A stretch of DNA of 64,000 nucleotides from Thermococcus sp. M39 (GTDB taxonomy: Archaea > Methanobacteriota_B > Thermococci > Thermococcales > Thermococcaceae): contig NZ_SNUG01000002.1 in NCBI RefSeq assembly GCF_012027325.1, positions 1-64,000 of the forward strand. Reading direction: 5' to 3'. The notes below the pieces were generated by a model, which had not been told where the DNA came from, made no database searches, and was given only the letters and a program-made list of their open reading frames with translations. The position numbers and the translations under genes were made by a program. Every line of letters starts with the position of its first letter. Positions within the stretch are counted from its first letter, which is position 1. Positions 14,901-39,433 of the stretch are shown in pieces.

Positions 14901-14908
14901 CTTAAAAA
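14901..14908 (+). promoter_or_regulatory. TATA-like element of the C/D box guide RNA gene
   Basis: CTTAAAAA lies about 26 bp before the predicted RNA 5' end at 14931 and is oriented with it. That is the normal archaeal spacing. It supports rightward transcription of the RNA, away from cytX. Confidence 0.45.
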
Positions 14909-14930: not shown

Positions 14931-14988
14931 GCTGGATGACGAGCGGTTTCGGAGCTGAGGAATGATGATACCAGCTATCGCCGACAGC
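14931..14988 (+). ncRNA. C/D box methylation guide RNA with two 12-nt guides, predicted target 23S rRNA
   Basis: The boxes occur in exact archaeal order: C (ATGACGA, 14936-14942), a 12-nt guide, D' (CTGA, 14955-14958), a 3-nt spacer, C' (ATGATGA, 14962-14968), a second 12-nt guide, and D (CCGA, 14981-14984). GCTG at 14931-14934 and CAGC at 14985-14988 close the terminal stem. The C and D boxes each have one U-to-C change, so the usual U-U pair of the kink-turn would be C-C. The D guide (TACCAGCTATCG) complements CGATAGCTGG, a conserved 23S rRNA domain II stretch as I recall it. The D' guide complements CTCCGAAACCGC, which resembles the sequence just downstream. It fills the gap between two genes exactly. 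Confidence 0.8.
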
Positions 14989-16587
14989 TTATTTCTTTTT
15001 AAGATACAACCCCACCAACAGCACAAGAACAACAAACACAAAAATCTCTTCCACCAATTTTATCCTTGGTTTTCCATATTCCTTGAAGCTCCCACTCCGG
15101 ACGTCCATTAAAAGAAGCAGCAGAGCGTAGTCCTCAGTGCAACCCCTATTTTGATAGTCTCCAGCAAGCTCACTCTCACATTTAAGGGAGCTGTAATTTC
15201 TCAAGAGCTCATCTATAGCTCTTGTTTCGCCAGCAAGATAATACCATAGCAAAGCAGTCACAGAAGGTCTTATGGAGTCGCTCCACCAGTCGTAATGTGG
15301 GTAAAGCTTAAAATTGTAGCACCCTTTGCTGCATTTTTGAATTTCAGCACAGTCAACCCGCATATAGCTTCTGTTTGTGAGCCTCTTGAAAAGAAATACA
15401 TTCACCTCTGGTTCCCAAGTAACTTCTTCTGGAACCGTGAAGTTCAGGCTTCCGCTTATTGTAAAATTCTTTTCAAGCGCTTTAAACTTCAAGCTTCTGA
15501 TCAAGAGATAGTAAAAGGTTCCGTTTTCAGTCATTTGGCTCAAGTTGGCTCCTTTGAATAAGACGCTCAGAGAATAGTTTTCTTTTGAGTTCCAGAATAA
15601 ATCTGTCGAAATGTAGAGTGTGTAATCGCCAGCAAAGGAAATCCTCGTTTTGTTCAGAATAGATACTATAAACCTAACGGCACTCTGATTAATCTCTGAC
15701 CCTTCTTCTTTAATCAGCACCAGAGGAACCACTAAGCTTTCAAAGGGCTCTCTATGATAAAAGTGAACGCTTGGAAAACCAAGCTGATAGAATGGAAAGC
15801 TGTACTCCCATTTGGGTGTTTCGTTTTCGAGGAGATATGTCAAGTAATCTTTGTTAATCAAATTCTCAGGCTTGAGGTTTGAGTTCAGCCACTGCAAGGA
15901 CTTCGATACGTTATATCCCAATCTATGGAGAAGCGCGACAGCATAAGCTGTGGCAACTAAGCTGGGCTTTTCTTTGAATCCCCACACTTTTTCAGCCTCT
16001 TTACAGCTCGAAACTCCTACTTTGGAAGAAGACACCGTGTAAACATACGTCCAGTATGTGCCGTTCTTCATAGTTTTCAGGAGATATTGCACTCCTTTCT
16101 TTATCACAGGAGAATTTCTAGGCTCGCCAGCATCTAAGAGCGCATACAAAATCAGAGCCGTTGAAGCGGCTCTGGAGCATGTCGTTATATAGCTATACTC
16201 AGGACACTTCTTGAATGAGAATCCGTAAAGACACGAGGGAAAGCCTTCAAACCCCTTTGGTCTCTCTGCATAGTAATAAGCATCGCAGGAAGGAACACCG
16301 GACACGTCAAAAGTTATGATAGGTGGAAATGAACCGTCATCTTCTTGAAGCGACTTCAGCCACTCAGCATACTCCTTAACAATCTCCCCCTCTGGAATAC
16401 CAGACCTTGCAACTGCTATTATCTCAAGAGAGCGGACATAGATTGCATAGCTAAGCTCAGCATTTTCGAAGAATTCATCTTGAGAAAGCTTTTTGATGAT
16501 GTCTCTTTTAGCTTCATCAAGAGGAACAGCCCCGACTTGAGATGTCAATATAAGGGCCATTACTAAGATAAGCGAAAGCTTTTTCAT
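14989..16587 (-). CDS. exported alpha/alpha-toroid (prenyltransferase/squalene-cyclase-like) protein
   Basis: A protein of 532 residues from ATG 16587, with a signal peptide (MKKLSLILVMALILTSQVGA) and a C-terminal membrane helix (FVFVVLVLLVGLYL) before KKK. It is therefore probably surface-anchored. Residues about 60-250 carry terpenoid-cyclase-type repeats: WLKSLQEDDGSFPP, SRAASTALILYALLDAGE and SLVATAYAVALLHRLGYN. These form alpha/alpha barrels also used in protein-binding domains. No cyclase DxDD motif is seen, so enzymatic activity is doubtful. Cysteines are unusually frequent (SCDAYYYAER, FPSCLYG, FKKCPEYSYITTC), suggesting disulfides. A GTG nine bases upstream is an alternative start. 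Confidence 0.6.
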   Translation of the reverse strand: MKKLSLILVMALILTSQVGAVPLDEAKRDIIKKLSQDEFFENAELSYAIYVRSLEIIAVARSGIPEGEIVKEYAEWLKSLQEDDGSFPPIITFDVSGVPSCDAYYYAERPKGFEGFPSCLYGFSFKKCPEYSYITTCSRAASTALILYALLDAGEPRNSPVIKKGVQYLLKTMKNGTYWTYVYTVSSSKVGVSSCKEAEKVWGFKEKPSLVATAYAVALLHRLGYNVSKSLQWLNSNLKPENLINKDYLTYLLENETPKWEYSFPFYQLGFPSVHFYHREPFESLVVPLVLIKEEGSEINQSAVRFIVSILNKTRISFAGDYTLYISTDLFWNSKENYSLSVLFKGANLSQMTENGTFYYLLIRSLKFKALEKNFTISGSLNFTVPEEVTWEPEVNVFLFKRLTNRSYMRVDCAEIQKCSKGCYNFKLYPHYDWWSDSIRPSVTALLWYYLAGETRAIDELLRNYSSLKCESELAGDYQNRGCTEDYALLLLLMDVRSGSFKEYGKPRIKLVEEIFVFVVLVLLVGLYLKKK

Positions 16588-16779
16588 AAACGTCACTTGT
16601 TCTGATTGTTTTTAAGGATTCTTCCTTAATGCTTCTTATTGTCAAAATGCTCCTTGGGAGCTTGATGGTTATTATTGCCCAAAAACCTTGTACCTTACCT
16701 GACCAGATTAGATATAAACAGGAGGGTCTCGTCTGATCCCTCTGTATGTTAATATTCCAAGATGTCCGGTCTGAGTTTT

Positions 16780-38609: not shown

Positions 38610-39433
38610 ATTTCAATTCTCCTAGAGTCTTATTGGAACCCTTTGTCAAAGCTGGGTTATTAAAGAGGGTCTTACTTTCAATTCTCCTAGAGTCTTATTG
38701 GAACACTCATCGTAGAGCTCAAGCAGCTCCTCCACGGCCCGCTTTCAATTCTCCTAGAGTCTTATTGGAACATGAAGGAAAAGTATGTGTATATTAAGTG
38801 GAATGGTTCTTTCAATTCTCTTAGAGTCTTATTGAAACTTGATTGAGCCAGTAGTGCAACCCCGGAGCATTCTGCTTTCAATTCTCTTAGAGTCTTATTG
38901 AAACCTTGGGGCTTGACAAGTCAATCACAATCACAAGCACCTTTCAATTCTCTTAGAGTCTTATTGAAACAGAGGTAGCAGAGGCATTAGAGTGTTACGA
39001 AATGCTCTTTCAATTCTCTTAGAGTCTTATTGAAACGCGTACCTTTTGTGGTGAAGTTGAGCGTTAAGCTGACTTTCAATTCTCTTAGAGTCTTATTGAA
39101 ACACTAATAGATGAGTTAATCCACAGAGTTGATAGAAGACTTTCAATTCTCTTAGAGTCTTATTGAAACCGATGAAGATGAATTTGACAGCCGTGTTTGT
39201 CAAAACTTTCAATTCTCTTAGAGTCTTATTGAAACTCCAATTCTTATAGCCAAGCTTGATTTACCAGTTCCCTTTCAATTCTCTTAGAGTCTTATTGAAA
39301 CGCACGGCCTCGACTACAGAGACTTTTATCAGAAGTGCTTTCAATTCTCTTAGAGTCTTATTGAAACAAGGGAAGCATTGGAGAGATATATCAGCGAGGA
39401 GCTCTTTCAATTCTCTTAGAGTCTTATTGAAAC
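38610..39433 (-). CRISPR. CRISPR array, 13 repeats and 12 spacers, leader on the right
   Basis: The plus-strand repeat is 30 bp, beginning CTTTCAATTCTC and ending TCTTATTGAAAC. Spacers are 35-37 bp, mostly 36. On the minus strand the repeat ends in ATTGAAAG, the 5' handle of Pyrococcus/Thermococcus crRNAs, so transcription runs leftward. Repeats start at 38610, 38675, 38742, 38809, 38875, 38941, 39007, 39073, 39140, 39206, 39272, 39338 and 39404. The three leftmost share two changes (CCTAG for TTAG-region T, and TTGGAAC for TTGAAAC). No cas gene is in the window, so the subtype is not determined. Confidence 0.97.

What the first reader, a model, noticed from the sequence alone, without database searches (positions are those of the whole stretch)
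14931..14988. Complete dual-guide C/D box RNA gene between cytX and a toroid-protein gene
All four boxes, both guides of exactly 12 nt, a 3-nt D'-C' spacer and a closing stem are present, with a TATA box 26 bp upstream and a T-rich end. The N+5 rule predicts 2'-O-methylation of the A in CGAUA by the D guide and of the G in CUCCG by the D' guide. Both are probably in the same stretch of 23S rRNA domain II, roughly 15 nt apart. The C and D boxes carry paired U-to-C changes, which would replace the kink-turn U-U pair by C-C. I recalled the rRNA sequence from memory and did not align it.
Basis: partly seen in the sequence, partly recalled or inferred. Interest (0 to 1): 0.7.

Follow-up and report, generated by a model that had tools for sequence, protein, structure and literature searches.

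The report
Known rRNA-methylation guide RNA, sR28
This is an ordinary archaeal guide RNA (sR28) that most likely tells the cell's methylation enzyme to mark two facing positions in the large ribosomal RNA; it is real and conserved in its archaeal family, but belongs to a catalogued kind.

Summary
14931-14988 (+) holds a 4-bp closing stem, box C AUGACGA, a 12-nt guide, D' CUGA, a 3-nt spacer, C' AUGAUGA, a 12-nt guide and box D CCGA, with a TATA-like box upstream. It is not new: it scores 48 bits against Rfam RF01136 (sR28, cut-off 39), and 35 of 37 genomes of its family carry it.

Against this genome's own 23S rRNA, the D guide pairs over 10 bp and predicts A927 (E. coli A804); the D' guide pairs over 9 bp and predicts G795 (E. 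coli G674). The distance is wrong: 132 nt, not about 15. The two sites lie on opposite strands of one rRNA helix. A review lists Gm809 and Am941 for P. abyssi, also 132 apart.

The C-C kink-turn change is real but not unusual. Among 125 C/D RNAs in 12 genomes this pair is U-U 57, C-C 16, G-C 15, A-U 15, and the two sides covary. Function is inferred; no RNA or methylation data were tested.

The parts
14901..14908 (+). TATA-like promoter element CTTAAAAA
   Evidence: sequence; CTTAAA at -34/-35 from box C in all six genus g1 copies and TATA-like motifs at similar distance in many other genera
14931..14934 (+). 5' side of closing stem (GCUG)
   Evidence: pairs with CAGC 14985-14988; stem pairs show compensatory changes across 31 copies, e.g. 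pair -1 G-C 15 / C-G 16, no mispair
14936..14942 (+). box C AUGACGA (kink-turn 3b = C)
   Evidence: sequence; Rfam sR28 alignment
14943..14954 (+). D' guide GCGGUUUCGGAG; 9 bp to 23S 793-801, N+5 nucleotide G795 (E. coli G674)
14955..14958 (+). box D' CUGA
   Evidence: sequence, Rfam alignment
14959..14961 (+). D'-C' spacer GGA (K-loop)
   Evidence: sequence
14962..14968 (+). box C' AUGAUGA
   Evidence: sequence, Rfam alignment
14969..14980 (+). D guide UACCAGCUAUCG; 10 bp to 23S 924-933, N+5 nucleotide A927 (E. coli A804)
14981..14984 (+). box D CCGA (kink-turn 3n = C)
   Evidence: sequence, covariation with box C
14985..14988 (+). 3' side of closing stem (CAGC)
14989..15000 (+). T-rich stretch just downstream; also the last codons of the convergent gene 14989-16596 (-)

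Best explanation
A single-copy gene for the Thermococcales box C/D guide RNA sR28. The roughly 58-nt RNA would be bound by L7Ae at its C/D kink-turn and C'/D' K-loop, then by Nop5 and fibrillarin. Its D guide base-pairs with 23S rRNA 924-933 and its D' guide with 793-801, placing fibrillarin at A927 and G795 (E. coli A804 and G674) for 2'-O-methylation. The two target strands form one helix in mature 23S rRNA, so the RNA would also hold those strands apart until release. Shown here: anatomy, orthology, guide-target complementarity, target geometry, and presence of fibrillarin and L7Ae genes. Inferred: transcription, assembly, methylation, chaperone effect.
For: Rfam RF01136 at 48 bits, cut-off 39. 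Found in 35 of 37 family genomes, 0 of 24 outside, with different neighbours: the cytX gene is adjacent only in genus g1 copies, the toroid gene only here and in G006, so the RNA is conserved independently of context. D guide: longest rRNA match 10 bp, reached by 16 of 1500 shuffles; D' guide: 9 bp, reached by 119 of 1500, weak alone. In genus g2, D' guide CCGGUUUCGGGA matches CCCGAAACCGG over 11 bp (7 of 8 genomes with both sequences; G032 has GCGGUUUCGGGA). In genus g3 the rRNA site has changed A to G, and the guide is U (wobble) or C (restored pair); guide C is never seen opposite target A. E. coli numbering from an alignment. A review's Table 2 lists P. abyssi Gm809 (same row as yeast Gm805 and human Gm1522) and Am941 (PMC11542601); their spacing of 132 equals that of G795 and A927. 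Fibrillarin (E = 2.2e-102) and L7Ae (E = 9.5e-33) are encoded.
Against: No RNA-seq or methylation data were available. The D' pairing of 9 bp, with mismatches at +1 and +2, is at the lower limit, and a shuffled guide does as well 8% of the time. A second site, 23S 704-715, pairs with the D' guide over 10 positions including two G-U pairs, but that site is absent in genera g2 and g6. The review labels its list experimentally mapped, but its archaeal citation appears misnumbered and probably derives from Gaspin 2000, which included predictions.
Confidence: 0.95

Rival explanations
1. The gene is an sR28 orthologue in which only the D guide still directs methylation; the D' guide has drifted and only anchors the RNA or is idle.
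For: D' pairing here is 9 bp with mismatches at +1 and +2, against 11 bp in most of genus g2.
Against: Core positions +3 to +11 are perfectly paired, including the N+5 nucleotide; the guide follows the A-to-G change of the target in genus g3.
Confidence: 0.15
2. The D' guide targets the second site 23S 704-715 (G708) instead of, or in addition to, G795.
For: 10 consecutive pairs including two G-U from +3 to +12.
Against: That site is missing in genera g2 and g6, which keep the guide; the literature-listed Gm809 corresponds to G795.
Confidence: 0.1
3. A chance arrangement of boxes in an intergenic region, not a gene.
For: Short boxes can occur by chance.
Against: Rfam score, orthologues in five genera in different contexts, compensatory stem changes, 27 against 0 matches in the backwards control.
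Confidence: 0.01

Closest known systems
Rfam RF01136, small nucleolar RNA sR28 (archaeal C/D box sRNA)
   Same: Both guides, box order and spacing; full-length match above the gathering score
   Different: Box C AUGACGA and box D CCGA against consensus AUGAUGA and CUGA; weaker 5' part of D' pairing (AG at +1/+2)
Yeast snR39b and its human equivalent (25S Gm805 / 28S Gm1522)
   Same: The D' target is listed in the same row as these eukaryotic sites in PMC11542601 Table 2 (as P. abyssi Gm809)
   Different: Eukaryotic guides are different RNAs with other partners; homology of the guides was not tested
N. equitans sR15/sR17 type long-range double guides (PMC4644070)
   Same: Two guides pair with opposite strands of one rRNA helix
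   Different: There the sites are in 16S rRNA; here in 23S domain II

Membership tests
Archaeal box C/D sRNA | Boxes C, D', C', D in order with two guides of about 12 nt | tested here: met
   one substitution from consensus in each of C and D
Archaeal box C/D sRNA | Closing stem and kink-turn with tandem G-A pairs | tested here: met
   GCUG/CAGC stem; both sheared G-A positions intact; compensatory stem changes over 31 copies
Archaeal box C/D sRNA | Guide complementarity to rRNA across the N+5 nucleotide | tested here: met
   10 bp (D) and 9 bp (D') to own 23S
Archaeal box C/D sRNA | L7Ae and fibrillarin encoded in the genome | tested here: met
   (Nop5 not searched)
Archaeal box C/D sRNA | Expressed small RNA bound by L7Ae | not testable with these tools
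   no RNA data held
Rfam sR28 (RF01136) | Covariance-model score above the curated cut-off | tested here: met
   48.0 bits against 39
Rfam sR28 (RF01136) | Same rRNA targets as other members of the family | tested here: met
   guides pair with the same two sites in 23S of eight genus g2 genomes; positions match listed P. abyssi Gm809/Am941 by spacing and base

The most novel reading that the evidence does not exclude
The pair next to the tandem G-A pairs of the C/D kink-turn (3b:3n) covaries among U-U, C-C, G-C and A-U states in Thermococcales guide RNAs, and this choice tunes how far each RNA depends on L7Ae to fold. With 3b = C, sR28 would be among the more ion-foldable; published k-turn rules (PMC4382518, PMC5689011) predict a shift, although its G-C pairs at -1b:-1n and 4b:4n oppose it.
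Probability: 0.2. Interest if true: 0.4.

Novelty: new member of a known kind. Interest (0 to 1): 0.18.

Why it matters
It adds a clean member, with targets checked against its own rRNA, to a known guide family and shows guide and target changing together across genera. The by-product is a covarying kink-turn pair in 125 guide RNAs, which would give natural variants for testing how L7Ae and metal ions share kink-turn folding.

Tried and rejected
Targets in 16S rRNA: best Watson-Crick runs are 8 bp (D') and 6 bp (D), below the 23S sites. tRNA targets were not searched. The cytX and toroid-gene neighbourhood as functional context: rejected, because other genera lack it. A pattern scan of all genomes with the D-guide/box D string was mostly chance bacterial matches; only two Thermococci contigs (L067, L107) had the full sR28, and one Thermoprotei contig (L132) had a C/D-like RNA with the same D guide. 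Literature searches found no open text on Pyrococcus sR28 itself. The C-C change as a special feature of this one RNA: rejected after the survey.

Full report
Observation. The interval 14931-14988 (+) reads GCUG-G-AUGACGA-GCGGUUUCGGAG-CUGA-GGA-AUGAUGA-UACCAGCUAUCG-CCGA-CAGC. The T-rich end is real, but it coincides with the last codons of the convergent gene 14989-16596, so it is weak evidence of a terminator. The TATA-like CTTAAAAA at 14901 is kept in the genus.

Identity. An Rfam scan of the whole window calls it sR28 (RF01136) at 48 bits, cut-off 39, E = 2.5e-9. The locus is single-copy in its genome. Of 37 genomes of the same family, 35 carry a match; none of 24 more distant genomes does. 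Named contigs with the full RNA are a Thermococcus sp. MAG (L067) and a Thermococci MAG (L107), so the genome is taken to be one of the Thermococcales.

Context. The gene is divergent from a cytosine/purine/thiamine-type permease (Pfam PF02133, 3.4e-45) and convergent with a 535-aa protein with only a sub-threshold match to a squalene-hopene cyclase domain. The permease is adjacent only in genus g1 copies, and the second gene only here and in G006. The guide RNA is conserved without them.

Targets. The two guides were compared with this genome's own 23S (G000:C2:290858-293888) and 16S rRNA. The D guide pairs over 10 bp at 924-933 and its N+5 nucleotide is A927. The D' guide pairs over 9 bp at 793-801 and its N+5 nucleotide is G795. 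By alignment these are E. coli A804 and G674. Shuffled guides reach such runs in 16 of 1500 and 119 of 1500 trials, so the D match is good and the D' match is weak if taken alone. Comparison decides: in genus g2 the D' guide matches the same site over 11 bp in seven of eight genomes; in genus g3 the site has A changed to G, and the guides carry U (4 genomes) or C (5 genomes) opposite it, while all 16 genomes with A have U. These genomes are related, so the count is not a significance test.

Geometry. The two predicted nucleotides are 132 nt apart. In the Rfam LSU consensus structure, bases within 792-804 pair with bases within 917-932, so the D' and D guides bind opposite strands of one helix. 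Holding both strands would resemble the chaperone role proposed for N. equitans sR15 and sR17 in PMC4644070. That role is inference here.

Literature. PMC11542601 Table 2 lists P. abyssi Gm809, in one row with yeast Gm805 and human Gm1522, and Am941. Their base identities and their spacing of 132 match G795 and A927, and in the genus g2 genomes the two nucleotides fall close to 809 and 941 (its printed G positions are one too low because of an indexing slip of mine, as the base shown, C, reveals). The review's citation for the archaeal column seems misnumbered; the data may come from Gaspin 2000 and include predictions.

Kink-turn. Box C carries C at 3b and box D carries C at 3n, in place of U-U. 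In sR28 copies the pair is C-C in 14, U-U in 11, A-U in 5 and C-U in 1 of 31. In 125 C/D RNAs matched by a pattern that leaves both positions free in 12 genomes (0 matches for the backwards control in every genome), the table is U-U 57, C-C 16, G-C 15, A-U 15, C-U 10, G-U 6, others 6; no within-genome shuffle of 5000 reached the observed mutual information. Related copies are counted more than once, but several families show different states in different genomes. McPhee et al. (PMC4382518) found that a Watson-Crick 3b:3n pair blocks ion-induced folding and 3b = C permits it; Ashraf et al. (PMC5689011) report U-U as the usual archaeal state and that G-C at -1b:-1n and 4b:4n impairs ion folding. 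sR28 here has G-C at both, so it probably still needs L7Ae.

Verdict. A correct observation of an ordinary, catalogued guide RNA, with the target distance corrected and the C-C variant shown to be one of several common, covarying states.

Noticed in passing
125 C/D sRNAs in 12 genomes of the family: The kink-turn pair 3b:3n of boxes C and D covaries (U-U, C-C, G-C, A-U), with intermediates mostly C-U and G-U, i.e. box C seems to change first.
   Followed up: partly
38610-39433 (-): CRISPR array with RF01319 (CRISPR-DR6) repeats, 13 copies at about 66-bp spacing.
   Followed up: no
L002, L007, L011, L013 (genus g3): In these sR28 copies no TATA-like motif was found at the usual distance from box C; the gene may be read from an upstream transcript.
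   Followed up: no
L132 (Thermoprotei archaeon contig QMRC01000003.1), around the ACCAGCTATCGCTGA match: A C/D-like RNA with the same D guide but a different D' half, suggesting that other archaea mark the same 23S adenosine with a differently built guide.
   Followed up: partly
G000:C2:459051-459157: Two C/D sRNA genes in tandem, about 8 nt between box D of the first and box C of the second; the same pair occurs in G004.
   Followed up: no
14989-16596 (-): 535-aa predicted protein with only a sub-threshold match to the squalene-hopene cyclase domain; its stop codon lies directly next to the sRNA end.
   Followed up: no
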